A stretch of 64,000 nt of DNA from an uncultured Oscillospiraceae bacterium (lineage in GTDB: Bacteria > Bacillota > Clostridia > Oscillospirales > Oscillospiraceae), in contig CALWXB010000006.1 in NCBI GenBank assembly GCA_944385405.1, positions 1 through 64,000 on the forward strand, written 5' to 3'. Position numbers and translations under genes: made by a program. This document shows, in pieces, positions 6,178-19,874 of the stretch. How positions within the stretch are numbered: position 1 is the first letter of the stretch; the number at the start of each line of letters is the position of its first letter. The notes under the pieces are model-generated. The model saw only the letters and a program-made list of their open reading frames with translations. It searched no databases and was not told where the DNA came from.

Positions 6178-6224
6178 AAAGGAGCCTGCGGCCGTGGCGG
6201 CCGCAGGCTCCTTCCTGGTTTTTT
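6178..6224. terminator. Bidirectional terminator
   Basis: A 14-bp perfect stem (6181-6194 with 6198-6211) around a 3-base loop. A T tract follows on the plus strand (to 6224) and TTTTCC on the minus strand. It ends both the VanY-type gene and the glycyl radical operon, which converge here. Confidence 0.85.
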
Positions 6225-6231
6225 ATAAGTA

Positions 6232-7140
6232 TCATCCACCCACCATCACCGGCAGTCCCCGGTCCCGGAAGAGCCGGCAGGCATCGTCGGTCTGCTCCTG
6301 CGTCAGCACCGGCGTATCCGCCAGCGTGTACGGGCGGAAGAGCCGGCCATACTTGCTGACGCCGGCCAGGGAATAGGGATGCAGGTCCACCTGGACATGG
6401 CCGGGCAGGGAGGCGATGAAGTCCGCCAGCTTGGAGAGCTCTTCCCGGGAGTCGTTGCAGCCGGGGATGAGGGGGATGCACACCGTCATGTCCGGATGAC
6501 AGGCGGCGGCATGGCGCGCATTGGCCAGGATCTGGGCATTGCCGGCGCCGGTGTAGCGCCGGTGCAGTTCCAGTGTGATGAACTTGAGGTCGAACATCAG
6601 GTGGTCCACCAGGGGGAGGAGGCGGGCGAAGGCCTCCGGATCGCCGAAGCCGCAGGTCTCAATGGCAGTATTGAGGCCGTGTGCCTTGCAGGCCTCCAGC
6701 AGCGCCAGCGTGAATTCCGGCTGGGCCAGCACTTCTCCTCCGGTCAGCGTCACACCGCCGGTCTCCCGATAGAACGGCAGGTCCTTCAAGCAGGCCTGGA
6801 CCACCTCTTCCACAGACACGCGTTTTCCATACACGCGCATGGCGTTGACCGGGCAGTGCTCCGCGCACAGCAGGCAGTCCGTGCATTTGCCGTGGTCGAT
6901 GGTCCGGCCCTGGGGCGCGGCTGCCACGGCGCCGGCCGGACAGACCCGGCTGCATGCGCCGCAGCCGATGCAGGCCTCGGCATAGTGCAGAACCTCCGGC
7001 ATGGGGCGCTGGGATTCCGGGTTGAAGCACCACCGGCACCGCAGGGGACAGCCCTTGAGGAACACGGCCGTGCGGATGCCGGGGCCGTCGTAGGTGGAAA
7101 AACCCTGGATCTTAAAGATGTATCCGCTGGGTGAGGTCAT
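6232..7140 (-). CDS. Glycyl radical enzyme activase (radical SAM)
   Basis: 302 residues. It uses S-adenosylmethionine and a [4Fe-4S] cluster to abstract hydrogen from the glycine of the partner enzyme. The radical-SAM motif is Cys31-X3-Cys35-X2-Cys38 in GCPLRCRWC. Two ferredoxin-like motifs follow ([12 protein letters not shown] and [12 protein letters not shown], about 58-95). This insert is present in activases of diol dehydratase, choline lyase and aryl decarboxylase types and absent from the simplest PFL activase. The N-terminal [11 protein letters not shown] and the [10 protein letters not shown] segment are also family marks. It is the last gene of the operon, 18 bp after the glycyl radical enzyme, which is its obvious substrate. 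An intact gene of normal length. Confidence 0.93.
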
Positions 7141-7158
7141 GGATCCCGCCTGCTTTCC

Positions 7159-9513
7159 TTAAATGTGATGCTCCGTACGGTGGATGATGTCGTCCTGGCA
7201 GCCGTCTCCCAGCTCGATGAAATAGGCCGCGTAGCCCGCTACCTTCACCATGAGGTCGGTGTGCTTTTCCGGGTGGAGCTTGGCGTCCCGCAGCGTTTCC
7301 ACCGACACGATGTTGTATCCGATGTTGCTGCCGCCCAGGGCAAAAAAGCCGTCTGTCAGGTCGATGAGCTTTTCCAGGCGGCGGTCGTCCTTCACGTCCT
7401 CGGGGCTGATGTGCCGGTTGAGCACGGTGCCGTTGGAGGCCCGGTCGTGTGGAAGCTTGGCCACGGAGCGCAGGGAGGCGGTGAGGCCGGAGACGTCCCG
7501 CCCGGCGTTGGGGGAGAGGGAATCGGAGAGCTGTTCGCCCTTTCTCCTGCCGTCCGGAGAGGCGGCGGTGCCCAGCCCCAGGTTGAAGTTGGCGGTGACG
7601 GACCAGAAGCCCGGGCGGAACGTCCCGCCCCGGGTGTTTTGGTACTTGGCGAATTCGTCGCAGAAGAAATTCGCGATCTCACAGGCCAGGGAGTCCGGCT
7701 CCTCCAGATCGTTGCCGTAGCGGTCCTGGAACTGGTCGATCATCCGCCAGACGTCGCCGTGGCCCTCAAAGTCGTCGTCCAGGGCCCGGACCAGCGCGTC
7801 CAGAGAAAGACGCTTTTGTTCGAACACCGCCCGCTTGATGAACATCAGGGAGTCCGTGATATTGGCGATGCCCACCATCAGGGGGCTGGTGAAATTGTAC
7901 CGGGCGCCGCCTTCGATGACGTCCTTTGCATTTTGGATGCAGTCGCCGGTGAGCAGGGAGACGGAGGTCTGGGGCATCAGGCGCATGTGGACGTCGTCGA
8001 TGAGGTTGCTCCAGCGCACGTGGCGGGCGATCATCTGAGACATCACCCGCTTGTACGCGGAAAAGAGTTCTTCAAAAGAGGTGAACGCCTCCGGAGGCTG
8101 GATGGGGTCTGTCACCTGGGTCCCGGTAAGGGCGCACCGGCCCTGGTGCAGGCACAGCTCCAGGATCTTCACCAGATTGAACCATCCGCCGGGAGCCCGG
8201 ATCCAGGCGTTGCAGGTGGCGTATTCCACGCAGCCGGTGGGGGTGTAGTTCCGGGCTTCCTCCAGCGGCAGGCCGTCCCGGGTGAGGGCCTGGATGATGA
8301 CCTCGTCGTGGAACACCTGGGGCAGCCCCAGCGCCAGGCGGATGACCTGTGCGCCGTGACGCTTAAAGTCCCGGGGGGTCCCGTCGTGGATGCGCATGCT
8401 GAAGTCCGGCTGCTGCAGGCGGACGGCGGCGTGGGCGTCCAGGCACATGTGGCTCAGTTCGTTCACTGCGTCGGAGCCGTCCGGCTTCATGCCGCCGATG
8501 GTGATGTGCTCGCCGAAGGGATGGCCGCCGTGGAAGTAGACGCTCTCGGAGTCGTCCACATGCATGATGTCGTTGATCTTGATCCAGAAGCAGTTGAGCA
8601 GCTCCTGGGCCCGCTCCTGGGTCAGGACGCCCTGCTGGATGTCGTGCAGGTAGTAGGGGTACAGATACTGGTCCATGCGGCCGAAGCTCATGGAGTAGGC
8701 GTTGGTCTCGATGAGGCCGATGAGATGGGCGAAGTAGACCGCCTGCAGGGCCTCGTGGAAGCTGGAGGCCGGGCCGGCCGGCACCCGGGCACAGATGCCT
8801 GCAAGATCCGTCAGCTCCGCCTTCCGCGCCGGATGGGTCTCCTCCCGGGCCTGCCGGGCCAGCAGATCGGAAAAGCGGTTGGAAAAATGGATGGCCGCGT
8901 CGCAGACGATCTCGGCGGCGTCCAGAAATTCCCGGGCGTGGCTGGGACCCGGCTCCAGGTCCTCCCGGCGCCGGCAGATCTCCGCCTTGATGCCGTTGTA
9001 CCCCAGGCGCAGCAGCTTTTCGTAATCCATGCAGTTGTGTCCCTGGGCGTTTTTCTCCAGGGACACGGAAAACACCAGGGTCCGCCGTGCCTGCAGGATG
9101 TCCTCCGGAAAGGCGTCGTAGCATGCCTCGTACAGTGTGCGGCCCTTCCAGATCCGGGCGATCTCCTTGAGTTCTTCCCGGGCTTTCTTCCCCACCTTCA
9201 GGGGGTTGATGGTGCGGGACTCCATGAGGTCGAATTCCGTGTCGTTCATCCAGTAGATGGTGTTCTCAGGATACACCGGCGGCCTGCGGATGCCCTCGCC
9301 CTGGTTGCCCGCCAGAAGGTCTCCCTCCGGGACGTAAATGGTCATTTGGGAGAGGACGTCCCGCAGGGTCTTGGCGCGCTTGAGCAGGATGGGCTCGTGC
9401 CGGTACTGCTCATATGCCCGGGTCACGATCCAGGCCCGCTCCGTCCCGATCTCCGGGATGCTTTCAAAGACGGCCTTGCGCAGCCGCTCCAGCCGTTCAT
9501 TCATCAAAATCAT
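7159..9513 (-). CDS. Glycyl radical enzyme, unknown substrate
   Basis: 784 residues, of the PFL/diol dehydratase superfamily. The thiyl-radical cysteine and catalytic glutamate are in GCVE (Cys428, Glu430), the form used by eliminating lyases/dehydratases and some decarboxylases, not the Cys-Cys of pyruvate formate-lyase. The glycyl radical loop is KVAGYAAYF with Gly760, 25 residues from the C-terminus; the usual Arg before VxGY is Lys here. Two starts are possible (MILMNERL or MNERL); AAAGGAG fits the first. The neighbours (permease, HyuA-like ATPase, HExxH and PH-like proteins) are not those of choline, propanediol, isethionate or hydroxyproline pathways, and no microcompartment shell genes are present. 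A C-O, C-N or C-S bond-cleaving lyase or a decarboxylase is likely; the substrate cannot be read from sequence. Confidence 0.9.
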   Translation of the reverse strand: MILMNERLERLRKAVFESIPEIGTERAWIVTRAYEQYRHEPILLKRAKTLRDVLSQMTIYVPEGDLLAGNQGEGIRRPPVYPENTIYWMNDTEFDLMESRTINPLKVGKKAREELKEIARIWKGRTLYEACYDAFPEDILQARRTLVFSVSLEKNAQGHNCMDYEKLLRLGYNGIKAEICRRREDLEPGPSHAREFLDAAEIVCDAAIHFSNRFSDLLARQAREETHPARKAELTDLAGICARVPAGPASSFHEALQAVYFAHLIGLIETNAYSMSFGRMDQYLYPYYLHDIQQGVLTQERAQELLNCFWIKINDIMHVDDSESVYFHGGHPFGEHITIGGMKPDGSDAVNELSHMCLDAHAAVRLQQPDFSMRIHDGTPRDFKRHGAQVIRLALGLPQVFHDEVIIQALTRDGLPLEEARNYTPTGCVEYATCNAWIRAPGGWFNLVKILELCLHQGRCALTGTQVTDPIQPPEAFTSFEELFSAYKRVMSQMIARHVRWSNLIDDVHMRLMPQTSVSLLTGDCIQNAKDVIEGGARYNFTSPLMVGIANITDSLMFIKRAVFEQKRLSLDALVRALDDDFEGHGDVWRMIDQFQDRYGNDLEEPDSLACEIANFFCDEFAKYQNTRGGTFRPGFWSVTANFNLGLGTAASPDGRRKGEQLSDSLSPNAGRDVSGLTASLRSVAKLPHDRASNGTVLNRHISPEDVKDDRRLEKLIDLTDGFFALGGSNIGYNIVSVETLRDAKLHPEKHTDLMVKVAGYAAYFIELGDGCQDDIIHRTEHHI

Positions 9514-9538
9514 GATGCGGATACTCCTTTCAGCCAGA

Positions 9539-10087
9539 TCACGCCCGCCGCTTTGCGCGGGTCCGCAGCGCGGTCAGCGGTCCTTTGTCCACACGCGCGG
9601 GAAGATAGCGGGCGGCGCAGTCTGTAAACGCCGCCATGGAGCGCCTCTCTCCACTTACCATAATGGATTTGTCCCCGGGATACAAGAGCCGGATGCGCTG
9701 GGGCGAGAGAATTTTGATGTGCTCCACCTGGGCCCACGGCATCTCGGCGGCCTTGCCGGTGAGCCCCACGCATACGATGCGGTCTTCATATACATAGACC
9801 GTTTTGACAAAATAGCTCAAAAACGCAAAGCCGCCCAGCAGGATGGAGGCCGCCAGGAAAAACAGGATGTTCTGCCGGAAGGCGGGGGGATACGCGGAAA
9901 AGAGGGAGCCGTCCATGCATGCGCACAGCAGCAGGGCCTCCAGCCACAGCACCGCGCCGAACCCGGCGGTCAGCCGGGTCTCCCGGACCCGGACTTCCCA
10001 CGGGCGGGGAATGTCCCGGCGGCCCCGCCGGGCGGCCGGCAGGATCAAAGCCGCAGAGAGCAGCATGGCGGAAATGACGGCGATCAT
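9539..10087 (-). CDS. Membrane protein with PH-like cytoplasmic domain
   Basis: 182 residues. Three hydrophobic segments (about 2-18, 40-58 and 70-92) precede a soluble C-terminal domain of ~85 residues. The domain contains VYVYEDRIVCVGLTGKAAEM and RIRLLYPGDKSIMVSGERR, the beta-strand pattern of bacterial PH (YdbS/YdbT-like) domains. The start at 10087 is set by an AGGAGGG site; it overlaps the end of the upstream gene by 4 bp (ATGA). Its placement inside the glycyl radical operon between the HExxH protein and the lyase is unusual. A role as membrane scaffold or sensor is possible, but nothing in the sequence shows it. Confidence 0.75.
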   Translation of the reverse strand: MIAVISAMLLSAALILPAARRGRRDIPRPWEVRVRETRLTAGFGAVLWLEALLLCACMDGSLFSAYPPAFRQNILFFLAASILLGGFAFLSYFVKTVYVYEDRIVCVGLTGKAAEMPWAQVEHIKILSPQRIRLLYPGDKSIMVSGERRSMAAFTDCAARYLPARVDKGPLTALRTRAKRRA

Positions 10088-10755
10088 GTGGATCCCTCCT
10101 GTTTTTCGGCGTGGGCCAGGATGCTGGAGTACAGCGCCTCCCCCGCCGCAGGCTGCAGGGCGTCCAGCAGGTACAGCTCCATGACGCAGGGGTGGAAGGG
10201 GAGGCGGAGCAGGACTTGGGTGAAGCGGCGGGCGGCGATCTCCCGCAGCGCCGGGACCGTGGAGCGGTTCTGCAGCGGTCCCAGCCGCCACAGGCAGACG
10301 TGCTTTTGCAGGGTAAAGATCTCCGGGTGGCGGGATTCATGGAGGTGATAGAGCTCATGGGCCAGGGCTGCGGCCCGGAAGTCCCACGCTCCGGTGAGAT
10401 CCGCCAGCCCCTGCTCCGCGGCGGCGTCCCGGACGCGGGCGTATTTGTCCGGAAACAGCGTGACCTGATCCGGCTCCGTGAACAGCGCCAGTACGCCGGC
10501 GGAGAGGGGGTCGCCGGTGCCCGGCTCCTCCGTGATGCGGATGCCGCTTTGCAGCAGATGTTCCTCCAGCGCCTGGGGGGAGGTCAGCTCCGGATAGCGG
10601 GCGGCGGCCGCCGCCGCAGCCGTCCTGGCCCCGGCGGCCAGGTCCTGCCTCCGGGCGGGGGAGAGGACCCGATAGGTCCGGTCTCCCTGGAACAGGTACT
10701 CGTCCCAGACCGCCTCGCCCACGTCCAGCAGGCGCAGCAGAATGTCCCGGGTCAT
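10084..10755 (-). CDS. HExxH-motif protein, putative zinc peptidase
   Basis: 223 residues, no signal peptide or membrane segment, so cytoplasmic. The motif ALAHELYHLHES gives a possible zinc site, His133-Glu134-X2-His137; a third ligand may be one of the acidic or His residues after it (for example in ESRHPEIF). The N-terminus is rich in Ala and Arg and unremarkable. I do not recognise a named family; it could be a metallopeptidase, or a metal-binding protein that has kept the helix. It starts 1 bp after the HyuA-like gene's stop and overlaps the PH-like gene, so its expression is tied to the operon. The link to the glycyl radical pathway is from context only. Confidence 0.65.
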   Translation of the reverse strand: MTRDILLRLLDVGEAVWDEYLFQGDRTYRVLSPARRQDLAAGARTAAAAAAARYPELTSPQALEEHLLQSGIRITEEPGTGDPLSAGVLALFTEPDQVTLFPDKYARVRDAAAEQGLADLTGAWDFRAAALAHELYHLHESRHPEIFTLQKHVCLWRLGPLQNRSTVPALREIAARRFTQVLLRLPFHPCVMELYLLDALQPAAGEALYSSILAHAEKQEGST

Positions 10756-10756
10756 A

Positions 10757-12868
10757 TCAGTTCCTGGCCGCCACCAGCAAGACGGGCTCCTCCGGCGCGG
10801 TGCCCAGGAACTCGGAGGTCATGATGGTCACCAGCTGCTCCAGACTGGTGATGCCCATGTAGTCCAGGATGCGGCCCTCTTTGCACAGGTAGAAATCCGG
10901 AGTGGACACCAGCTCGTTGCGGTAGGAGAGCATCTCCTGCCAGAGGCGGGAGACGGTCTCCTGCCACTGGGCCGCGGTGCACCGCTCCACGGCGGCGTCC
11001 CCCCGCTGGACGCGGACGAAGCCCTTCTTGTCCACGATGCGCATCGCCGTGGCGTCTCCGGTCCGGTGGGCAAAGACATAGAAGAGGTCGTCGTGCTCTG
11101 CCAGCTCCACTTCGTCGGGGGACAGCTGCATGGACCTGGCGGCGATGCTCCGCATCTCCGCCTCATCGCAGACCTTCAGCAGGTCCGTGGCCTGTACCTC
11201 GGTGGAGCCCATGGCGATGGCCGTGACCTTGGAGGACTGGGAGTCCACCTCGATCTGCACCACCACGCTCTCCGGCACAGCGCCGCTTTTCACCGCCATC
11301 ATCCGGGCCTCCTTCTTCAGCTCGATGATGTCCTCCGTGGTGGGATTGGGCAGCACCCGCTCCACCACGTCCCGGACCATGGCCAGCGCCACGCCGATGG
11401 AGGAGATGACCTCCGCGTGCTCCGGGATGTCGTAGGGCATTTCCAGACGGCGGGAGGAGAAGGGGATCAGGGCGGAGGCGCCGCCGCCCAGGGCAACCAG
11501 GGTGTTCTGGCTCTTTTCCAGATGGTATTTGTCGATGAACTCCAGGATCACGGGCTCGATCTTGGCATAGGCCTTTTCCAGGATCATCTCCGCGCACCGC
11601 TCTACGGACACCCCCAGATAGTCTGCCAGGGGCTGCATGGCCCGGCGGGCAGAGTCGGCGTTGCCGTAGGCGTAGTCCGTGGGCTTCACCAGGCCCAGTA
11701 CGTTGGCCGCGCAGCTGTTGGTCAGGGTGATCCGGCGGCCGTCCTTGAGGCGGATGGCCACATAGTCGGCGGGGTCGCCCTCCCGGGGGGAGAAGAATTC
11801 CAGCTCCGGGTCCTCCACGCAGTCTGTGTAGACGGCGTAGTCCATGCCGGCGATGTGGGCGCTGCGGGGACCCACGTCGATGAGCTTGTGGTCGCCGGCC
11901 CGCACCATGCTGCCGCCGGCCACGCCCAGGACCCGCACGTCCAGGGAGCTGATGTAGGTCCGGTGTCCGCCCACGATGGAGTATTCCACCGCCGGGCGGC
12001 CGTTTTTGATGACGCCGATGTTGGTGGTGGTGCCGCCCACCTCAAAATAGATGCCGTTGGAGGCCCGCAGATACATCAGAGCCCCCACCACGCTGGCCGC
12101 CGGGCCGGAGAGCATGGTCAGGACGGGCCGCTTGCGCATCTCGCTCAGCTCCATGACGCCGCCGTCGCCCCGCATGATCATCAGCGGGACGTGGATGCCC
12201 ACCGCCCGCACGGACTCCTCCGTGGAGTTGGCGGTGTTGAGCATCTTGGGCAGGATGCTGGCATTGATGGACGCGGTGCGGGTCCGCCGGGTCAGACCGT
12301 ACAGCTTGCTGATCTCGGAGGCCATGGTGACCGGGATCTGGTGCGCCTGCGCCACTTCCCGGACCAGGTCCTCCTCGTCCAGGCTGTCCACGCCGAAGGC
12401 CTTGGAGGCCACGATCACCCGGCTCCCCGCCGCTGTCAGCTGTTCCAGCTCCTGCTCCACCCGCTCCCGGGTCAGCTGCTTGAGGGGGATGTAGGTGTGG
12501 TTGCAGTGGATGGAGCGGCCGGAGCCCAGGTCGATGTCCGGGATCTGGGTCTGATTTTTGGCCAGCAAGCCCTCCAGGCCGCCCTTGCCCATGCCGATGA
12601 TGCCCACCGAGGCGACATCGCCTTCGATCAGCGCGTTGGTGGCCTGGGTGGTGCTGTGGGCGATGAACACCACCTCCTCCGGCGCGATGCCGTGCTTGCT
12701 CAGACAGTCTTTAAAGCATGCGATCACGCCTGCGGCCACGCCTATTTTATCGCTGTGGGTGGTCTTGACGATGGATTCTCCGATGATCTCATGGGTGGCG
12801 TTGTCAATGGCCACCGCTTTGGTATGGGTGCCGCCTACGTCGATCCCCATCCGCACTTCTCTAGGCAT
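10757..12868 (-). CDS. HyuA-like hydantoinase/oxoprolinase family ATPase
   Basis: 703 residues. The N-terminal phosphate-binding loop GIDVGGTHTKAV (8-19) and a second ASKHA signature (FEVGGTTTNIGVI, about 275) mark the hydantoinase A/5-oxoprolinase/acetone carboxylase family, which couples ATP hydrolysis to opening or carboxylating small amides and ketones. A third conserved region is LVALGGGASALIPF. It is longer than the minimal ATPase, with a C-terminal ~170-residue region I do not recognise. HyuB, the usual partner subunit, is absent from the window. A GAGGAG site precedes the start. It is the second gene of the LacI-controlled operon. It may act on the product or precursor of the lyase; a reactivase-like ATPase role is an alternative. 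Confidence 0.85.
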   Translation of the reverse strand: MPREVRMGIDVGGTHTKAVAIDNATHEIIGESIVKTTHSDKIGVAAGVIACFKDCLSKHGIAPEEVVFIAHSTTQATNALIEGDVASVGIIGMGKGGLEGLLAKNQTQIPDIDLGSGRSIHCNHTYIPLKQLTRERVEQELEQLTAAGSRVIVASKAFGVDSLDEEDLVREVAQAHQIPVTMASEISKLYGLTRRTRTASINASILPKMLNTANSTEESVRAVGIHVPLMIMRGDGGVMELSEMRKRPVLTMLSGPAASVVGALMYLRASNGIYFEVGGTTTNIGVIKNGRPAVEYSIVGGHRTYISSLDVRVLGVAGGSMVRAGDHKLIDVGPRSAHIAGMDYAVYTDCVEDPELEFFSPREGDPADYVAIRLKDGRRITLTNSCAANVLGLVKPTDYAYGNADSARRAMQPLADYLGVSVERCAEMILEKAYAKIEPVILEFIDKYHLEKSQNTLVALGGGASALIPFSSRRLEMPYDIPEHAEVISSIGVALAMVRDVVERVLPNPTTEDIIELKKEARMMAVKSGAVPESVVVQIEVDSQSSKVTAIAMGSTEVQATDLLKVCDEAEMRSIAARSMQLSPDEVELAEHDDLFYVFAHRTGDATAMRIVDKKGFVRVQRGDAAVERCTAAQWQETVSRLWQEMLSYRNELVSTPDFYLCKEGRILDYMGITSLEQLVTIMTSEFLGTAPEEPVLLVAARN

Positions 12869-12896
12869 ATGCGCTCCTCTCTGTTGAATGGGCTTG

Positions 12897-12931
12897 CGGG
12901 CGTTCCGGGGAGAGGCTCCGCCGGAACGCCG
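12897..12931 (-). other. Intercistronic hairpin
   Basis: GCGTTCCGG (900-908 of this kb) pairs with CCGGAACGC (921-929), extended by further G-C pairs with one bulge. It lies between the permease and HyuA-like genes without a T tract. It may stabilise or attenuate the operon message. Confidence 0.4.
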
Positions 12932-12950
12932 CAGGTCAGGTCAAAGCCGG

Positions 12951-14279
12951 TCAAAATCCGTTTGCAAACACAACGTACGCCACGAACTGCAGCACGAAGG
13001 CCACAGCCAGCGCAAAGGGCAGCACGGTCCGCAGGTACTCCTTCGTCGTGATCTTGGTATAGCCGATGGCCCAGACGCACCAGGACTGGGTGGGGCAGAT
13101 GGAGCCGTTGATGGCGGTGGAGGGGATGAAGAACAGCGGGAAGAGCACGTGCACGGGATAGAGGTTCAGCCCCTGCATCATGGTCAGCGTGGCGCCGCCG
13201 GCGCCCCAGACGGTGAAGGGACCTCTGAACAGGGCCAGGAACGCCAGAAGGGCGAAGATCACCACCAGCAGGAAGGTGTTCTCCGGCATGATGGGGGACA
13301 GAATGGGCGCCAGGAGCGGCGCGCAGACCTTGGCGGCCTGCTGGTACATCTGGATCATCATCAGCATGCCCAGCACCAGGCCGATGCTGGCCACACCGTT
13401 GGCAAAGGTCTTCTGCATGAGCGTGCTGAGCTTTTTCGGCTCCTTGAAGTAGCCGGTCCAGAAGGTGCCCCAGATCACGGCGATGAGGATGGAGGGGATC
13501 ACCTGGACATTGCAGGCGATGCTCAGCACCGGGGAGATGAGGGGGGTGAGGCAGGCCAGGAAGTTGGCCTCCTGCTTTCCATCCTCCAGTGGGGCCCCCG
13601 CGGCCCACGCGGATACCGCCCGGGCCTTGCTCTGCTGGCGCCGCATCACCACGATGATCATCAAGATGGTAGCCAGCAGCTGCACGCCGAAGGCGATGGC
13701 GGCGAAGAGCTTGTAGGTAGCGCTGAAGGAGATGCCCTCCATCAGTCCCTCAAACAGGGTGAACCAGGACTTGTTGAAGTAGAGCCCGCAGCCCACCGCC
13801 ATGAGGAAGGAGCCGGCGGCCAGGGGCTTGGGGATGCCCAGGGAGAGCAGGATCGGGAAGACGATGCAGCCGATGGCGATGACGGCGCCCACGCCGTAGG
13901 CCGTGCAGAAAATGACGGCCACCAGGACGCTCAGCAGGGAGCAGGTGAACGCGGGATGATCGCCGCCCAGCTCCACGGCCTTCCGGATCAGGGTCTTGGC
14001 AATGCCCGTCTCCACCAGGACCTCGCCGAACCAGCTGCCGAACATGATGATGGCAGCGGAGGAGCCGTAGCTGGTGGGGCCGTTCTGGAAGATGCCGGTG
14101 TTGATGTCCAGCATGGTGCCGGTGGGGTCGTTCCAGACCGTGACGCCGGCAATGGCGCCCAGTCCGGCCCAGAGGATGGCCATGAAGAGGAAGCCCATCA
14201 TCAGGTTTCCGCCCCGCATGGCGTAGACTGCAAACAGAAGGAACGAGACGATCAATAAAATTCCGATCACGATATCCAT
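12951..14279 (-). CDS. Carboxylate/ion-transporter superfamily permease
   Basis: 442 residues, almost entirely hydrophobic, with roughly 11-12 transmembrane segments in two halves. A soluble loop near 210-235 (rich in Arg, Gln and Lys) separates them. Features such as GVGAVIAIGCIVFPILLSLG and the paired re-entrant-like segments fit the ion transporter superfamily (GntP, CitMHS and related proton- or sodium-coupled carboxylate carriers). The exact family is uncertain. An upstream GTG is possible, but GGTGGGAG sits 5 bp before the ATG at 14279. As first gene of the operon it presumably imports the substrate handled by the HyuA-like and glycyl radical enzymes. That substrate is likely a small organic acid or amide. 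Confidence 0.8.
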   Translation of the reverse strand: MDIVIGILLIVSFLLFAVYAMRGGNLMMGFLFMAILWAGLGAIAGVTVWNDPTGTMLDINTGIFQNGPTSYGSSAAIIMFGSWFGEVLVETGIAKTLIRKAVELGGDHPAFTCSLLSVLVAVIFCTAYGVGAVIAIGCIVFPILLSLGIPKPLAAGSFLMAVGCGLYFNKSWFTLFEGLMEGISFSATYKLFAAIAFGVQLLATILMIIVVMRRQQSKARAVSAWAAGAPLEDGKQEANFLACLTPLISPVLSIACNVQVIPSILIAVIWGTFWTGYFKEPKKLSTLMQKTFANGVASIGLVLGMLMMIQMYQQAAKVCAPLLAPILSPIMPENTFLLVVIFALLAFLALFRGPFTVWGAGGATLTMMQGLNLYPVHVLFPLFFIPSTAINGSICPTQSWCVWAIGYTKITTKEYLRTVLPFALAVAFVLQFVAYVVFANGF

Positions 14280-14324: not shown

Positions 14325-14474
14325 GATGTGTACCGGTTAACTAAGCAAAAAATATAAAATTTTTGAATGTAAACCGGTTAACATCCCACAACCATTCCCA
14401 TGTCCATCACCACCCCGCCAACTGTCCGGATGTCTGCTCCCCCTGTCGGGAAACGATGTGTACCGGTTAACTAA
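14325..14474. promoter_or_regulatory. Three LacI-type operators
   Basis: Near-identical sites: 14325-14344 and 14455-14474 are the same 20 bases (GATGTGTACCGGTTAACTAA). 14367-14384 (ATGTAAACCGGTTAACAT) is a near-perfect palindrome around AACCGGTT. The even, CG-centred symmetry is typical of LacI-family operators, and the regulator gene is adjacent. The outer site lies just after the predicted start of the operon transcript; the other two are ~90 and ~130 bp further on, allowing DNA looping. Confidence 0.75.
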
Positions 14475-14497: not shown

Positions 14498-14526
14498 AAT
14501 ATATAGCAGGGACTGTGCAATGTCAA
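14498..14526 (-). promoter_or_regulatory. Promoter of the glycyl radical operon
   Basis: On the minus strand: TTGACA (14526-14521), a 17-bp spacer, TATATT (14503-14498). Transcription would start near 14491, giving a leader of about 210 bases. An operator at 14455-14474 covers the first transcribed bases, where a LacI-type protein would block initiation. Confidence 0.7.
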
Positions 14527-14569: not shown

Positions 14570-14598
14570 TTGACAGGCTCCGGCCCCTCTGATATAAT
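14570..14598 (+). promoter_or_regulatory. Promoter of the LacI-family gene
   Basis: TTGACA (14570-14575), 17 bp, TATAAT (14593-14598): a full consensus match, pointing to the regulator gene 65 bp on. Confidence 0.8.
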
Positions 14599-14662: not shown

Positions 14663-15724
14663 ATGCTGTCGTATAAAAACAAGATCACGATCCAGGACGT
14701 GGCGGACATGGCGGGAGTCTCCAAAACCACGGTCTCCCGCTATATCAACGGGAAATATGAGTACATGTCGGAGGAGACGCGGCAGCGGATCGGGCAGATC
14801 ATCGAAAAGACGGGGTACATGCCCTCCACCTCCGCCCAGAGCCTCAAGTCCAACCGCACGGGGCTCATCGGGCTGCTGATCGCGGACATCGGAAATCCTT
14901 TTTCCACGGCGCTGCTCACCAGCATCACCGATTCCCTCCATCAGATCGGCTACAATGTGCTGGTGGCCAACGCCAACAATTCCCAGCGCCTGGAGGCAGA
15001 GTACCTGCACTCGTTCCTCTCCCGGGGCGTGGATGGGATCATCATCAATCCGGTCCTGTGGGAGAATCCGCTGCTGGTGTCGCTGAAGGAGCAGGGGCTG
15101 CCCATCATGCTGCTGGACCGTCAGGTGAAGGGCTGCGAGCTGGATCTGGTATATCTGGAGAACGAGCGGTCCATCTGCTGCGCGGTGGAGCATCTGCGGG
15201 AGCAGGGCTACGATGATACCTGGCTGCTCTCGTGGGAGTATCAGAATATCTCGGTGCGTTATGACCGTTATCAGGCATTTCTCAAATGCATGCGTACATA
15301 TGGCGTCCCGGAGCCGGAAAAGCAGGTGCACATCCAGACGTCGGCATCCGGCACGGGACTGCTGGAGGCACTGGATCGGATCGTGACGGCCAGCCGCCGG
15401 CGGGGGAAGACCCCCGGCGTCATCACGGCCAATGAGATTTTGCTGCTGGAGACCATCCAGGCGGTCAAGAAGCTGCAGCTCCGAATGCCACGGGAACTGG
15501 GCGTGTGCGGGTTCGATGACTGGGGATGGTCGGACATGATCTGGCCCACGATCTTCTCCCCCACCATTACCACCCTGGATGCGGACATCCAGCGGATGGG
15601 GCGCCTGGCGGCGCATCTGATCGTAGAGCGGATCATGGAGCCGCATCAGGCGGTGCGGAAGATCCCGGTCCCCGTGGAGCTGGTCCCCCGGGAGTCCACG
15701 GACCTGAAGGCGGTCCGGACATAG
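14663..15724 (+). CDS. LacI/GalR-family transcription regulator
   Basis: 353 residues. The helix-turn-helix is at the N-terminus (TIQDVADMAGVSKTTVSRYI, about 8-27) with the hinge-helix region in QSLKSNRT. A periplasmic-binding-protein-like effector domain follows (GLLIADIGNPFSTALL to the C-terminus, including GVCGFDDWGWSDMI). The start is fixed by GGAAGGGGG upstream. It is divergent from the glycyl radical operon, and three operator copies lie between the two, so it is very probably that operon's repressor. The effector pocket usually binds a sugar or sugar-like ligand; here it may bind the pathway substrate. A perfect hairpin follows the gene. Confidence 0.93.
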   Translation: MLSYKNKITIQDVADMAGVSKTTVSRYINGKYEYMSEETRQRIGQIIEKTGYMPSTSAQSLKSNRTGLIGLLIADIGNPFSTALLTSITDSLHQIGYNVLVANANNSQRLEAEYLHSFLSRGVDGIIINPVLWENPLLVSLKEQGLPIMLLDRQVKGCELDLVYLENERSICCAVEHLREQGYDDTWLLSWEYQNISVRYDRYQAFLKCMRTYGVPEPEKQVHIQTSASGTGLLEALDRIVTASRRRGKTPGVITANEILLLETIQAVKKLQLRMPRELGVCGFDDWGWSDMIWPTIFSPTITTLDADIQRMGRLAAHLIVERIMEPHQAVRKIPVPVELVPRESTDLKAVRT

Positions 15725-15896: not shown

Positions 15897-16772
15897 ATGC
15901 GAATCTCTGAGATTTTGCAGCGGGACGCACTGTCCCTGTCTTTTGAGGTGTTCCCCCCCAAGACCACCAGCGCGTTTGAAAGCGTCAAGGCGGCCACGGA
16001 GCAGATCGCGGCTCTGGGGCCTGCCTTCGTCAGCGTCACCTACGGCGCCGGCGGCGGCACCAGCCGGTATACGCTGGAGATCGCCCGGAACATCCGGGAG
16101 CGGTACGGCGTGCCCACTGTGGCCCACCTGACCTGCGTTTCCTCCACCCGGGAGCTGGTGCAAGAGCGGATCGCCGACATGCAGGCATCGGGCATCGAGA
16201 ACGTCATGGCGCTGCGGGGGGACCTGACGCCGGAGCTGGCTCAGGGGGACCGCAGCGGCTGGGCCTATCACCATGCTGTGGAGCTGGTGCGGGAGCTGAA
16301 GGACAGCGGCGCGGATTTCTGCATCGGCGGTGCCTGCTATCCGGAGGTGCATCCGGAGAGCGCCAATCAGAAAGAGGACATCCTCCATCTGAAGGAAAAG
16401 GTGGATGCCGGGTGCGAATTCCTCACCACCCAGATGTTCTTTGACAACAACCTCTTCTACAATTTCCTCTACAAGATCCGGGAGGCGGGCATCACGGTGC
16501 CGGTGCTGCCGGGCATCATGCCCATCACCAAGGCCAGCCAGGTGGAGCGGGCCATCCAGCTGTCCGGATCCTTCATGCCCCAGCGGTTCAAGAGCCTGGT
16601 GGATCGGTTCGGCGACAACCCGGACGCCATGAAGCAGGCGGGCATCGCCTACGCCACGGACCAGATCATCGACCTCTTTGCCAACGGGATCCGCACCGTC
16701 CACGTCTACACCATGAACAGCCCCGACGTGGCCGCCAGGATCCTGGACAACCTCTCTCATATCCTGGGCTGA
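15897..16772 (+). CDS. metF: 5,10-methylenetetrahydrofolate reductase
   Basis: 291 residues, the usual MetF length. It reduces methylene-THF to methyl-THF, the methyl donor for methionine synthase (and, in acetogens, the Wood-Ljungdahl pathway). Recognisable segments are SFEVFPPKT at the N-terminus (with the catalytic Glu), FVSVTYGAGGG, LRGD near residue 110 and TQMFFDNNLFYNF. The protein fold is a flavin-binding TIM barrel. It is followed within 4 bp by the methionine synthase reactivation-domain gene and then metH, so the three form a methionine/one-carbon operon. Confidence 0.95.
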   Translation: MRISEILQRDALSLSFEVFPPKTTSAFESVKAATEQIAALGPAFVSVTYGAGGGTSRYTLEIARNIRERYGVPTVAHLTCVSSTRELVQERIADMQASGIENVMALRGDLTPELAQGDRSGWAYHHAVELVRELKDSGADFCIGGACYPEVHPESANQKEDILHLKEKVDAGCEFLTTQMFFDNNLFYNFLYKIREAGITVPVLPGIMPITKASQVERAIQLSGSFMPQRFKSLVDRFGDNPDAMKQAGIAYATDQIIDLFANGIRTVHVYTMNSPDVAARILDNLSHILG

Positions 16773-16776
16773 GCAT

Positions 16777-17442
16777 ATGGTACGTGTCAAGACCATCTCC
16801 CTCCCCCCGACGGACCGGGGGGAGGTCCTGCGCTACGCCGGCTGCCGCAGGCCCGGCGAAGCGGACCGGGCGCTGCTGGAAAGCTGTCTTTCCGAGCTGG
16901 GGGACCGGCTGCGGGGCCGGGTGTGCTGGGACGTGTTCCCGGTGACGGCGCTGGCGGAGGGCGGGCTGGATCTGGGATTCGCCCGCACCGGCTCCCGGGA
17001 CCTGGGCCGGCGGCTGGCGGAGTGCCGGGAATGCGTGGTGTTTGCCGCCACTGTGGGGCTGGAGATGGACCGGCTCATCGCCCGGTACGGCGGTGTCTCC
17101 CCGTCCAGGAGCCTCTTTTTCCAGGCCATCGGCGCAGAGCGCATCGAGGCGCTGTGCGACAGCTTCTGCGTACAGGCGGCGGAGGCGCTGGAGCGGCAGG
17201 GCAGGGGCGTCACGCCGCGGTTCAGTCCCGGGTACGGGGATCTGCCCCTGGAGCTGCAAACTGAGATCTTCCGGGTGCTGGACTGTCCCAGGAGGATCGG
17301 ACTGACCCTGAACGAGAGCCTTTTGATGAGCCCCTCCAAGTCCGTTACCGCCGTGTTCGGCGTCACGGACCGTCCGGGAGGGGGCTGTGCCGGGGCGGGC
17401 TGTGCCGCCTGCGGAAACCAAGCGTGTGCATACAGGGAGTGA
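16777..17442 (+). CDS. Stand-alone methionine synthase reactivation domain
   Basis: 221 residues. The sequence matches the C-terminal activation domain of cobalamin-dependent methionine synthase as a separate protein: RFSPGYGDLPLELQ and LLMSPSKSVTAVFGV are the SAM-binding segments. In E. coli this domain re-methylates oxidised cob(II)alamin using SAM and an electron donor. A cysteine-rich tail (GCAGAGCAACGNQAC) may bind metal. It lies between metF and metH with 4-bp and 8-bp gaps, and the neighbouring MetH lacks this domain, so the two proteins should work in trans. Confidence 0.9.
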   Translation: MVRVKTISLPPTDRGEVLRYAGCRRPGEADRALLESCLSELGDRLRGRVCWDVFPVTALAEGGLDLGFARTGSRDLGRRLAECRECVVFAATVGLEMDRLIARYGGVSPSRSLFFQAIGAERIEALCDSFCVQAAEALERQGRGVTPRFSPGYGDLPLELQTEIFRVLDCPRRIGLTLNESLLMSPSKSVTAVFGVTDRPGGGCAGAGCAACGNQACAYRE

Positions 17443-17450
17443 GAGACGCC

Positions 17451-19874
17451 ATGGATATTTTGGAACTGCTGAAACGGAGCCTTGTCTATCTGGACGGCGG
17501 CATGGGGACGCTGCTGCAGAGCCGGGGGCTGAAGCCCGGGGAGCGCCCGGAGACCTGGAACCTGACGCATCCCCAGGAGATCACCGCCATCCACCGGGCC
17601 TATTTTGAAGCCGGCAGCCATGTGGTGTGCGCCAACACCTTCGGCGCCAATTCCCTGCATTTCCCAGGGGCGGAGCTGGAGCCCGTGGTGGCGGCGGCTC
17701 TGGCCAACGCCCGGGCCGCCCGGGCTGCCTCCGCCGGGGAACAGGAGAAGTTCGTGGCGCTGGACATCGGTCCCACCGGGCGGCTTCTGAAGCCTTACGG
17801 CGATCTGGACTTCGAGGAGGCGGTGGCTGTCTTTGCCCAAACGGTGCGCCTGGGCGTGCGGTACGGGGCGGACCTCATTTTCATCGAGACCATGAACGAC
17901 AGTTACGAGACCAAGGCGGCGCTGCTGGCTGCCAAGGAAAACAGTACGCTGCCGGTGTTCGTCTCCAACGCCTACGGAGAGGACGGCAAGCTCATGACCG
18001 GAGCCTCTCCGGCGGCCATGGTGGCCATGCTGGAGGGGATGGGGGCCGACGCCGTGGGCGTCAACTGCTCCCTGGGCCCCAGGGCGCTGGCGCCGGTGGT
18101 GGAGGAGTATCTCCGCCGGGCCTCGGTGCCGGTGCTGCTCAAGCCCAACGCGGGCCTTCCCCGGGAGGAGCATGGCCTGGCGGTCTACGACGTGATGCCG
18201 GAGGAATTCGCCGCGGAGACGGCGGCGCTGATGGAAAAAGGCGTACGCCTGGCCGGCGGCTGCTGCGGCACCACGCCGGCGTATATCGCCGCACTGGTGG
18301 AGCGCACGCAGGATCTTGCGCCGCGGCCGGTGGAGAAAAAGGGCATCACCTGTGTCAGCTCCTACACCCACGCGGTGGACTTCGGGGACGATCCCGTGCT
18401 CATCGGCGAGCGGATCAATCCCACCGGCAAGAAGCGGTTCAAGGAGGCCCTGCGCACCGGCGACATGGACTATGTCCTCACCGAGGGCATCCGCCAGCAG
18501 GAAGCGGGGGTACAGGTGCTGGATGTGAATGTGGGTCTGCCGGAGATCGACGAGCCCGCGGTGCTGGAGGAGACGGTGTGCCGTCTCCAGGCGGTGGTGG
18601 ACCTGCCGCTGCAGATCGACACCTCCGATCCAGCCGCCATGGAGCGGGCCCTGCGCCGCTACAACGGCAAGGCCATGATCAACTCCGTCAACGGGAAGGC
18701 GGAGAGCATGGAGGCCGTGTTCCTCCTGGCCCGGAAGTACGGCGGCGTGGTGGTGGCGCTGACGCTGGACGAGGGCGGCATCCCCGAGACCGCGGAGGGG
18801 CGCCTGGCCATTGCGGAGCGGATCCTCCGCCGGGCGGCGGACTACGGCATCAGCCGGGAGGATATTGTTTTCGATCCCCTGGCCATGGCGGTGAGCGCCG
18901 CGCCGGAGGCTGCCCGGGTGACGCTGGAGTCTCTGGCGCTGATCCGGGACCGACTTGGGTGCCGGACCTCCCTGGGAGTGTCCAATGTGTCCTTCGGCCT
19001 GCCGGGCCGGGAGGGCGTCAACGCCGCCTTCTTCGCCCTGGCGCTGGGCCGGGGACTGTCGGCGGCCATCATGAATCCCTTCTCCGCCGCCATGCTGCGC
19101 ACCTATCACGCCTACCGGACGCTGCTGGGCCTGGATGAAAACTGTGCCGGATACCTTGCGTTCGCCGCCCAGGACGTGCCGGAGACGCCCGCCGCCGCGC
19201 CTGCGGCCGCGGCCTCGCCTCAGCAGGCGGACGCGTCCCGCTCCGCGCTGCAGCGGGCGGTGGTGAAGGGGCTGAAGGACCAGGCGGCGGCCGCTACCCG
19301 GTCCCTGCTGGCCACGGCGGAGCCGCTGGATATCGTCCGGCAGGAGATCATCCCGGCGCTGGACATCGTGGGCAAGGGCTTTGAGGACAAGACCCTCTAC
19401 CTTCCCCAGCTGCTCATGAGCGCCGAGGCCGCCAAGGGGGCCTTTGAGGAGATCAAGGCCGCGCTTTCCGCCAGGCAGGGCGGATCGGCCGCCAAGTGCC
19501 CCTTCGTCATCGCAACGGTCCAGGGGGACATCCACGACATCGGCAAGAACATCGTGAAGCTCCTGCTGGAAAACTACGGCTTCGCCGTCACGGACCTGGG
19601 CCGGGACGTGGCGCCGGAGGCGGTGGTGGAGGCGGTGCAGCGCCTCCACGCGCCGCTGGCGGGCCTCAGCGCCCTGATGACTACCACGGTGCCTGCCATG
19701 GAGGAGACCATCCGCCAGCTGCGGGCAGGCGCTCCCTGGTGCAAGGTGGTGGTGGGCGGCGCGGTGCTGACCCAGGAATATGCCGACCGCATCGGCGCCG
19801 ACAAGTATGCCAAAGACGCCATGGAGACGGTGCGCTACGCAGAGGAGATCGCCGCCCCCCTGGAAAAAACATAA
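17451..19874 (+). CDS. metH: Cobalamin-dependent methionine synthase, three-module form
   Basis: 807 residues. It transfers methyl from methyl-THF to homocysteine through cobalamin. Module 1 (1-285) is the homocysteine domain with zinc ligands Cys206 (GVNCSLGP) and Cys271/Cys272 (GGCCGTTP). Module 2 (about 305-580) is the pterin-binding barrel (LIGERINPTGKKRFKEAL, later SLGVSNVSFGLPGR). Module 3 (about 600-807) is the cobalamin cap and binding domain with GDIHDIGKN (His695 is the cobalt ligand). A low-complexity Ala/Pro linker lies at ~575-590. Compared with E. coli MetH (1227 residues) the activation domain is missing and is supplied by the preceding gene. Start fixed by GGGAGTGAGAG 8 bp upstream. 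Confidence 0.95.
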   Translation: MDILELLKRSLVYLDGGMGTLLQSRGLKPGERPETWNLTHPQEITAIHRAYFEAGSHVVCANTFGANSLHFPGAELEPVVAAALANARAARAASAGEQEKFVALDIGPTGRLLKPYGDLDFEEAVAVFAQTVRLGVRYGADLIFIETMNDSYETKAALLAAKENSTLPVFVSNAYGEDGKLMTGASPAAMVAMLEGMGADAVGVNCSLGPRALAPVVEEYLRRASVPVLLKPNAGLPREEHGLAVYDVMPEEFAAETAALMEKGVRLAGGCCGTTPAYIAALVERTQDLAPRPVEKKGITCVSSYTHAVDFGDDPVLIGERINPTGKKRFKEALRTGDMDYVLTEGIRQQEAGVQVLDVNVGLPEIDEPAVLEETVCRLQAVVDLPLQIDTSDPAAMERALRRYNGKAMINSVNGKAESMEAVFLLARKYGGVVVALTLDEGGIPETAEGRLAIAERILRRAADYGISREDIVFDPLAMAVSAAPEAARVTLESLALIRDRLGCRTSLGVSNVSFGLPGREGVNAAFFALALGRGLSAAIMNPFSAAMLRTYHAYRTLLGLDENCAGYLAFAAQDVPETPAAAPAAAASPQQADASRSALQRAVVKGLKDQAAAATRSLLATAEPLDIVRQEIIPALDIVGKGFEDKTLYLPQLLMSAEAAKGAFEEIKAALSARQGGSAAKCPFVIATVQGDIHDIGKNIVKLLLENYGFAVTDLGRDVAPEAVVEAVQRLHAPLAGLSALMTTTVPAMEETIRQLRAGAPWCKVVVGGAVLTQEYADRIGADKYAKDAMETVRYAEEIAAPLEKT

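What the first reader, a model, noticed from the sequence alone, without database searches (positions are those of the whole stretch)
6232..14279. Uncharacterised glycyl radical operon with a lone HyuA-like ATPase
Seen: six tightly spaced minus-strand genes for a permease, HyuA-like ATPase, HExxH protein, PH-like membrane protein, GCVE-type glycyl radical enzyme (Cys428, Glu430, Gly760) and its activase. Known: characterised glycyl radical pathways (choline, propanediol, glycerol, hydroxyproline, isethionate, aryl decarboxylation) have other partners, and HyuA usually needs HyuB. Inference: an unreported anaerobic pathway in which a small organic acid or amide is imported, acted on by an ATP-dependent amidohydrolase or carboxylase, and cleaved by a radical lyase.
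Basis: partly seen in the sequence, partly recalled or inferred. Interest (0 to 1): 0.78.

Follow-up and report, generated by a model that had tools for sequence, protein, structure and literature searches.

The report
Sugar-acid operon with unusual radical enzyme
A bacterial operon with its own repressor gene combines a three-gene set (a transporter, a partnerless hydantoinase-type ATPase and a small zinc-site protein) that recurs in many bacteria, often beside sugar-acid genes, with an oxygen-sensitive radical enzyme unlike those compared; what it breaks down is not known.

Summary
The six minus-strand genes are real; Cys428/Glu430/Gly760 are as stated. The finding missed a divergent LacI gene (14663-15724) and three palindromic operators whose pattern occurs nowhere else in the 2.2-Mb genome. 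The glycyl radical enzyme (GRE) is not what is conserved: of the 80 best HyuA loci from named genomes, 74 have the permease, 69 the HExxH protein, 67 both, one the PH-like protein, none a GRE or activase in the DNA held (up to 8 kb each side). In its nearest clade the permease-HyuA-HExxH core sits with KDG kinase and KDPG aldolase; other clades carry UxuA, YiaK-like and YhcH genes. I read it as import and breakdown of a sugar-acid-like compound, with GRE plus activase in the slot that L095, the closest HyuA, fills with RraA-Eda-KdgK. The HyuA lacks canonical ATP-site motifs; 22 of 24 other genomes with it have no HyuB. HExxH may be the hydrolytic half (inferred). The GRE passes no equivalog cut-off and is rejected from the glycerol/propanediol dehydratase clade (p 0.0098). 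Substrate unknown.

The parts
6232..7140 (-). Glycyl-radical-enzyme activase (radical SAM with ferredoxin domains)
   Evidence: TIGR02494 311 bits (cut-off 174), Radical_SAM, Fer4; 18 nt after the GRE
7159..9513 (-). Divergent glycyl radical enzyme; C428, E430, G760, H159, S274
   Evidence: PFL-like 642 bits; over TIGR01774 (685 against 678), below every equivalog cut-off listed; long branch, no supported partner
9539..10087 (-). PH-like membrane protein (182 aa, three hydrophobic stretches)
   Evidence: No family; one homologue, 27% identity, E 2e-7, at the same place in L095; hydropathy
10084..10755 (-). Small HExxH protein (223 aa); H133, E134, H137, E172 invariant in the alignments
   Evidence: Alignments A2 (19 rows) and A4 (40 rows); AlphaFold pLDDT 95.7; best PDB match PprI, weak
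10757..12868 (-). Lone HyuA-type ATPase (703 aa) with changed nucleotide-site motifs
   Evidence: Hydantoinase_A 214 bits; fold of N-methylhydantoinase and acetone/acetophenone carboxylase subunits; K17, E276, no GxxPGP
12951..14279 (-). Permease, distant to CitMHS/GntP/DcuC/TRAP carriers
   Evidence: Window protein itself matches none; up to 6 of 16 relatives match these Pfam families weakly; profile hits TRAP permeases at E 0.002-0.003
14327..14341 (+). LacI-type operator 1 (TGTGTACCGGTTAAC)
   Evidence: pattern unique in genome; binding not tested
14368..14382 (+). LacI-type operator 2 (TGTAAACCGGTTAAC)
   Evidence: pattern unique in genome; binding not tested
14457..14471 (+). LacI-type operator 3 (TGTGTACCGGTTAAC)
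   Evidence: pattern unique in genome; binding not tested
14498..14526 (-). Promoter-like site for the operon (TTGACA, 17, TATATT)
   Evidence: 11 of 12; consensus match only
14570..14598 (+). Promoter-like site for lacI (TTGACA, 17, TATAAT)
   Evidence: 12 of 12; consensus match only
14663..15724 (+). Divergent LacI-family regulator
   Evidence: LacI + Peripla_BP_3; 35-39% identity to the LacI beside HyuA cassettes in L071, L096, L097, L099, L102, L103
6179..6213 (+). Hairpin (16-bp stem) between the operon end and the converging + strand gene
   Evidence: listed as terminator-like for the + strand only; the stem could also form in the operon's transcript (inference)

Best explanation
An operon with a local LacI regulator for import and breakdown of a sugar-acid-like compound. 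Shown: the conserved core is permease + partnerless HyuA-type ATPase + small HExxH protein; a LacI gene and palindromic sites flank it; in its closest relatives the same core sits with KDG kinase, KDPG aldolase and often 3-hexulose-6-phosphate synthase and a SIS protein or, in other clades, with UxuA, YiaK-like Ldh_2 and YhcH. Inferred: the permease imports the compound; HyuA uses ATP to activate a carbonyl (amide, lactam, lactone or keto group) and the HExxH zinc site, in place of HyuB, completes the hydrolysis; the product enters sugar-acid metabolism. In this genome the GRE with its activase stands in the slot that L095 fills with RraA-Eda-KdgK, and most likely removes water (or a neighbouring leaving group) from a hydroxylated acid. 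The substrate is unknown.
For: HyuA tree: the window groups with L095 and L102 (98%), next to L096/L097/L099/L103 (87%). LacI kin: a 12- or 13-of-14 operator match just before lacI in 4 of 9 loci (L099, L103, L143: 13; L152: 12). Operators unique in the genome. Partner families by HMM on representatives. No HyuB in 22 of 24 other genomes with this HyuA nor in the own genome. HExxH: invariant HExxH plus distal Glu. In CapAB one subunit phosphorylates and the zinc subunit hydrolyses (PMC8453981, passages). The GRE keeps the Cys, Glu and His of GRE dehydratases (set recalled; residues); it leans, without firm support (84/49), to L175/L180/L016/L194, of which L175 and L180 have TRAP-type carriers and UxaA-like or 2-hydroxyacid-dehydrogenase-like genes nearby by eye. 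A Ruminococcus gnavus operon whose gene names resemble L115/L116 is induced log2FC 4.1-4.4 by agaro-oligosaccharides (PMC11581127, passages and section 22).
Against: No substrate, no biochemistry. Only 32 of 80 runs (gap <300 nt, same strand) contain one of the nine sugar-acid-type families counted, three of them (L165, L172, L173) only through a longer SIS-domain protein that may be a regulator; many cassettes stand with a regulator only. KDG-type gene sets are not one clade of the HyuA tree (5 changes). 5 of 9 LacI loci show no site of 12 or better. The GRE-cassette link is known from one genome; one transcript is inferred from spacing, and a weak minus-strand terminator-like site lies at the end of the permease gene (12995-12977). 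HyuA's changed ATP site could mean that it no longer phosphorylates a substrate; the close relative G025 does have a HyuB elsewhere. The PprI match is weak (E 0.48, TM 0.33; no PDB match at E <= 0.001). The GRE's highest identity is to L177, a glycerol-dehydratase-like protein, yet it lacks the Asp at the GD Asp447 position.
Confidence: 0.5

Rival explanations
1. The GRE-activase pair is a passenger: a separate enzyme inserted behind the cassette, with its own substrate and no pathway link to HyuA.
For: GRE near HyuA in 0 of 80 loci. In the phylum sample none of the 17 other genomes with a GRE hit at E <= 1e-160 is among the 21 other genomes with HyuA. In the family sample, G062 and G160 hold HyuA and a GRE, but on another contig or more than 600 kb away.
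Against: Gaps of 25 and 18 nt, same strand, no minus-strand terminator-like site listed between PH-like gene and activase; similar composition; it is the only PFL-like protein found in the genome.
Confidence: 0.25
2. HyuA is a sugar-acid kinase or an ASKHA ATPase switch rather than half of a hydrolase, and the HExxH protein is a regulatory protease.
For: Among 41 aligned members: K for the last P1 Asp in 31, P2 Asp replaced by Glu in 41, GxxPGP absent in 41; ASKHA kinases and activators also match the fold (ranks 8 and lower); weak PprI match of HExxH.
Against: Best fold and sequence matches are hydantoinase, lactamase and carboxylase subunits; ten of 80 runs have a separate KDG-kinase-type protein.
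Confidence: 0.25
3. One reading: a glycyl-radical pathway for a small organic acid or amide.
For: GRE, activase, permease and HyuA are adjacent.
Against: The GRE is not a conserved partner; relatives carry sugar-acid-type enzymes.
Confidence: 0.1
4. HyuA is a reactivating ATPase for the GRE.
For: Some ASKHA proteins activate other enzymes; such activators are at ranks 9, 28, 29 and 41 of the fold list.
Against: No GRE was found beside the HyuA cassette in 80 loci.
Confidence: 0.03

Closest known systems
ATP-dependent lactamases and hydantoinases (caprolactamase CapAB, 5-oxoprolinase, N-methylhydantoinase)
   Same: Hydantoinase_A domains and overall alpha-subunit fold
   Different: No HyuB/CapB partner; P1 K17, P2 E276, no GxxPGP; partner is a small HExxH protein
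Acetone and acetophenone carboxylases
   Same: Fold of the ATP-binding subunits
   Different: No HyuB-type subunit found; changed nucleotide motifs
B12-independent glycerol and propanediol dehydratases
   Same: Closest solved structures by sequence; GCVE, Gly radical, His159, Ser274
   Different: 37% and 36% identity; Asp447, His281 and Tyr339 positions changed; one clade with them rejected, p 0.0098, on 21 of 61 rows
Hexuronate / KDG catabolic clusters (UxuA, UxuB, KdgK, Eda)
   Same: Such enzymes accompany the cassette in relatives
   Different: None of them lies in the window operon; an Eda and a UxuA lie on other contigs of the genome
ImmA/IrrE/PprI (M78-type) metalloproteins
   Same: HExxH with a distal Glu; weak fold match to PprI
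   Different: No Pfam M78 hit; TM-score 0.33; unknown substrate

Membership tests
Hydantoinase_A/oxoprolinase ATP-dependent hydrolase | Hydantoinase_A and Hydant_A_N domains | tested here: met
   214 and 71 bits, above the cut-offs
Hydantoinase_A/oxoprolinase ATP-dependent hydrolase | P1 DxGGTxTD, P2 DxGGT, adenosine GxxPGP (motifs from PMC8453981, passages) | tested here: not met
   Window has DVGGTHTK and EVGGT; GxxPGP in 0 of 41 aligned members
Hydantoinase_A/oxoprolinase ATP-dependent hydrolase | HyuB partner | tested here: not met
   0 in the own genome (88% complete); none in 22 of 24 other genomes tested, of 26 found with this HyuA
Hydantoinase_A/oxoprolinase ATP-dependent hydrolase | ATP-dependent ring or amide opening | not testable with these tools
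   needs enzyme assay
Glycyl radical enzyme | Thiyl Cys, radical Gly, dedicated activase | tested here: met
   C428, G760, activase 18 nt downstream; the radical itself not testable here
Glycerol/propanediol dehydratase subgroup | His164, His281, Ser282, Tyr339, Cys433, Glu435, Asp447 (1r8w residues recalled, no call) | tested here: not met
   H159, S274, C428, E430 kept; His281 is Y273, Tyr339 is G334, Asp447 column not Asp
Glycerol/propanediol dehydratase subgroup | One clade with them | tested here: not met
   AU test p 0.0098 on a 21-row subset; the same test on 61 rows did not finish; the window is a long branch, so the model may mislead
NCBIfam GRE equivalogs (HypD, HpfG/HpsG, CutC, indoleacetate and HPA decarboxylases, PFL) | Score over the curated cut-off | tested here: not met
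   best 563 bits against a cut-off of 1000
M78 (ImmA/IrrE) metallopeptidase | Family HMM or clear fold | tested here: inconclusive
   no Pfam hit; PprI is top Foldseek hit at E 0.48, probability 0.91
LacI family regulator with local operator | LacI HTH, periplasmic-binding-like domain, palindromic sites near its gene | tested here: met
   binding itself not tested

The most novel reading that the evidence does not exclude
Permease-HyuA-HExxH is a widespread, undescribed uptake-and-activation module in which a HyuA-type ATPase works with a small HExxH zinc protein instead of HyuB, a new two-part ATP-dependent hydrolase for conjugated or cyclic sugar acids; and the window's GRE is a radical dehydratase for such a sugar-acid product, founding a new GRE subgroup.
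Probability: 0.25. Interest if true: 0.78.

Novelty: new variant of a known kind. Interest (0 to 1): 0.56.

Why it matters
It names a compact, testable cassette, complete in loci titled or placed as Bacillota, Chloroflexota, Pseudomonadota, Synergistota and Actinomycetota, with HyuA alone or with the permease also in Acidobacteriota and Ignavibacteriota, among them, by their names, gut bacteria. Apart from the R. gnavus induction table (PMC11581127) I found no description of it; the searches were those, in a library that holds open-licence papers only. A HyuA-type ATPase without HyuB and with rewritten ATP motifs asks what the domain does on its own, and the operon ties one orphan branch of glycyl radical enzymes to a likely substrate class. 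Named strains with the cassette exist (Paenibacillus, Neobacillus, Fonticella, Lacrimispora).

Tried and rejected
Rejected: GRE as the conserved centre of the operon. HyuA as GRE reactivase. GRE as a glycerol/propanediol dehydratase; it passes no HypD or PFL-type equivalog cut-off and shows no supported grouping with HypD, PflD or YbiW. HyuA paired with a distant HyuB. Foreign origin of the GRE by composition: its GC is like that of the other operon genes.

Led nowhere: close relatives of the GRE in genome contigs and viral contigs by short peptides; PDB sequence hits for the permease alone or a usable one for HExxH. Literature on a GRE with hydantoinase gave one paper, seen in the listing only and unrelated by title. 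The 3-hexulose-6-phosphate synthase in relatives suggests formaldehyde handling in some clusters; this was not followed to a substrate. The neighbourhood of Eda and UxuA in the own genome was only looked at by eye. A KDG-kinase search of the own genome gave weak hits only, the best (26%, E 6e-15) beside Eda.

Only 44 of them hold more than 7 kb on both sides of HyuA, and my ORFs must be closed, so a GRE cut by a contig end would be missed. One (L162) has its HyuA cut by the contig end; 12 others lack permease or HExxH in my calls; all 13 stay in the denominators. Alignments A4 (40 rows), A5 (41 rows, window included) and the GRE set (61 rows) were chosen by me from what I had; A2 includes two proteins picked by the HExxH pattern itself (L083, L085). 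Operators in relatives were scored only where LacI matched at E < 1e-40 (9 loci) and without a chance control. Cluster names rest on HMM checks of representatives; single-linkage clusters may hold stray members. In the HyuA tree 46 of 87 rows bore no gene-content label. Glycerol dehydratase residue numbers are recalled.
Full report
What is there. The catalytic residues are as stated: Cys428, Glu430, Gly760. A hairpin at 6179-6213 separates the operon end from a converging + strand gene; the scan lists it as terminator-like for the + strand only. Upstream, facing the other way, lies a LacI-family gene (14663-15724). The 383-bp gap between it and the permease holds promoter-like sites for both (11 and 12 of 12 matches) and three copies of a palindromic, LacI-type operator. 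The pattern TGTNWACCGGTTAAC with up to 2 mismatches is expected 0.08 times in the window and was found 4 times, at three sites; TNWACCGGTTWAC without mismatch occurs in the 2.2-Mb genome only at these three sites. I take this as one regulated unit with its own regulator (binding inferred).

What is conserved. HyuA relatives are uncommon: 6 of 300 genomes of the family (own included, E <= 1e-40) and 22 of 398 of the phylum (own included, E <= 1e-60). A scan of named genomes kept the best 80 loci of at least 546. With profiles for HyuA, permease and HExxH, and BLAST (E <= 1e-4) for the rest, 74 of 80 have the permease, 69 the HExxH protein and 67 both; none has a GRE or an activase in the DNA held (up to 8 kb each side; 44 of 80 hold more than 7 kb on both sides); one, L095 from a Chloroflexota MAG, has the PH-like protein directly behind HExxH. 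None of the 17 other genomes with the best GRE matches (E <= 1e-160) is among the 21 other genomes with HyuA in that sample; in the family sample G062 and G160 hold both, but on another contig or more than 600 kb apart.

Context of the core. Recurrent neighbours, checked by HMM on representatives, include KDG kinase, KDPG aldolase, 3-hexulose-6-phosphate synthase (214 bits against a cut-off of 200) and a SIS protein; a xylose-isomerase-like TIM barrel; UxuA; a mannitol-dehydrogenase-type (UxuB-like) protein; Ldh_2 (YiaK-like); YhcH/YiaL; FAD_oxidored. 32 of 80 runs contain at least one of the nine sugar-acid-type families that I counted (three of them only a longer SIS-domain protein that may be a regulator); 48 do not. 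In the HyuA tree the window groups with L095 and L102 (98%), next to L096, L097, L099 and L103 (87%); gene-content labels, borne by 41 of 87 rows, are clustered on the tree (0 of 500 shuffles as low), but the KDG-type set needs 5 changes and is not one clade. The LacI of L096, L097, L099, L102 and L103 is 35-39% identical to the window's. Of the 9 loci with such a LacI, 3 have a 13-of-14 operator match just before lacI (L099, L103, L143), one a 12-of-14 (L152), and 5 none above 11 (L071, L096, L097, L102, L135). In L095, the highest HyuA identity (66%), the order is permease-HyuA-HExxH-PH-RraA-Eda-KdgK; in the window it is permease-HyuA-HExxH-PH-GRE-activase. The GRE pair thus stands where L095 has RraA-Eda-KdgK. 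The own genome has an Eda and a UxuA on other contigs.

A lead from print. In Ruminococcus gnavus an operon with YhcH/YiaL, a hydantoinase/oxoprolinase, a 'peptidase' hypothetical, UxuA, YiaK and a further hypothetical gene was the set most induced by agaro-oligosaccharides (log2FC 4.1-4.4; PMC11581127, passages and section 22). If the last hypothetical is the permease, its gene content is that of L115 and of part of L116 (Ldh_2-permease-HyuA-HExxH-YhcH-UxuA). I did not see the R. gnavus sequences; the authors thought that the dehydratase and the dehydrogenase barely contribute to agaro-oligosaccharide degradation.

HyuA. Its fold matches N-methylhydantoinase and acetone and acetophenone carboxylase subunits, then caprolactamase (model pLDDT 83.9). 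Against the motifs printed for CapA and its relatives (PMC8453981, passages), P1 ends in Lys instead of Asp in the window (of 41 aligned members 31 K, 8 D, 2 H), P2 begins with Glu instead of Asp in 41 of 41, and GxxPGP is absent in 41 of 41. HyuB was not found in the own genome nor in 22 of 24 other genomes with this HyuA; the two exceptions are G025 and G608. It is thus a member of the Hydantoinase_A superfamily, but not shown to be a hydantoinase.

HExxH protein. His133, Glu134, His137 and Glu172, invariant in 19 and in 40 aligned rows, suggest a zinc site. The model is confident (pLDDT 95.7); the best solved match is PprI, weakly (E 0.48, probability 0.91, TM 0.33; nothing at E <= 0.001). 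In CapAB the zinc subunit does the hydrolysis; HExxH filling that place here is inference, helped by the 1-nt spacing to HyuA.

GRE. Only the general TIGR01774 model is passed among the full-length GRE families listed. Closest solved by sequence: glycerol dehydratase, diol dehydratase and 9rco; 9rco falls with a grpM protein that lies beside pdu-type genes, which I take for propanediol dehydratase. The window GRE keeps His159, Ser274, Cys428 and Glu430 but has Tyr273, Gly334 and no Asp at the positions of GD His281, Tyr339 and Asp447 (GD numbers recalled). The best identity in 398 genomes of the phylum is 41-42%, the highest to L177, a glycerol-dehydratase-like protein. In a tree of 61 rows it is a long branch in no supported small set. 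On 21 rows, holding it with the glycerol/propanediol dehydratase rows is rejected (AU p 0.0098), and it leans without firm support (84/49) to L175, L180, L016 and L194. Neighbours of L175, L180 and L193 look by eye like TRAP carriers, with UxaA-like and LarA-like or 2-hydroxyacid-dehydrogenase-like genes. A dehydratase role on a hydroxy acid is the likeliest reading, not shown.

Verdict. Observation confirmed; interpretation partly right; the interesting object is the conserved permease-HyuA-HExxH cassette, with a GRE addition seen in this one genome. Function is inferred throughout from neighbours and motifs.

Noticed in passing
G000 (window genome), PF02901 search: The GRE in the window is the only PFL-like protein found in the 88%-complete genome, so a housekeeping pyruvate formate-lyase was not found.
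   Followed up: no
L046 (OR848123.1): A record filed as Listeria phage LM 4-14-1 looks by eye like a bacterial chromosome fragment (IF-3, ribosomal proteins, mevalonate genes) and carries the permease-HyuA-HExxH cassette.
   Followed up: partly
L071, L096, L097, L099, L103, L109, L135, L143, L152: A 3-hexulose-6-phosphate-synthase cluster and a SIS protein sit in HyuA operons, which hints at formaldehyde release or 3-keto-hexose phosphates in these pathways (HMM check on L071; clusters).
   Followed up: partly
L040 and L041 (G160): One genome carries two copies of the cassette with different partners.
   Followed up: no
window 15897-19874, + strand: MTHFR and, by eye, a methionine-synthase-like gene follow lacI; probably a separate unit.
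   Followed up: no
L117, L118, L119, L129: Four Enterococcus cassettes share a different partner set: TIM-barrel isomerase-like and shikimate-dehydrogenase-like (both by eye), MFS carrier (checked in L117) and SDR.
   Followed up: no
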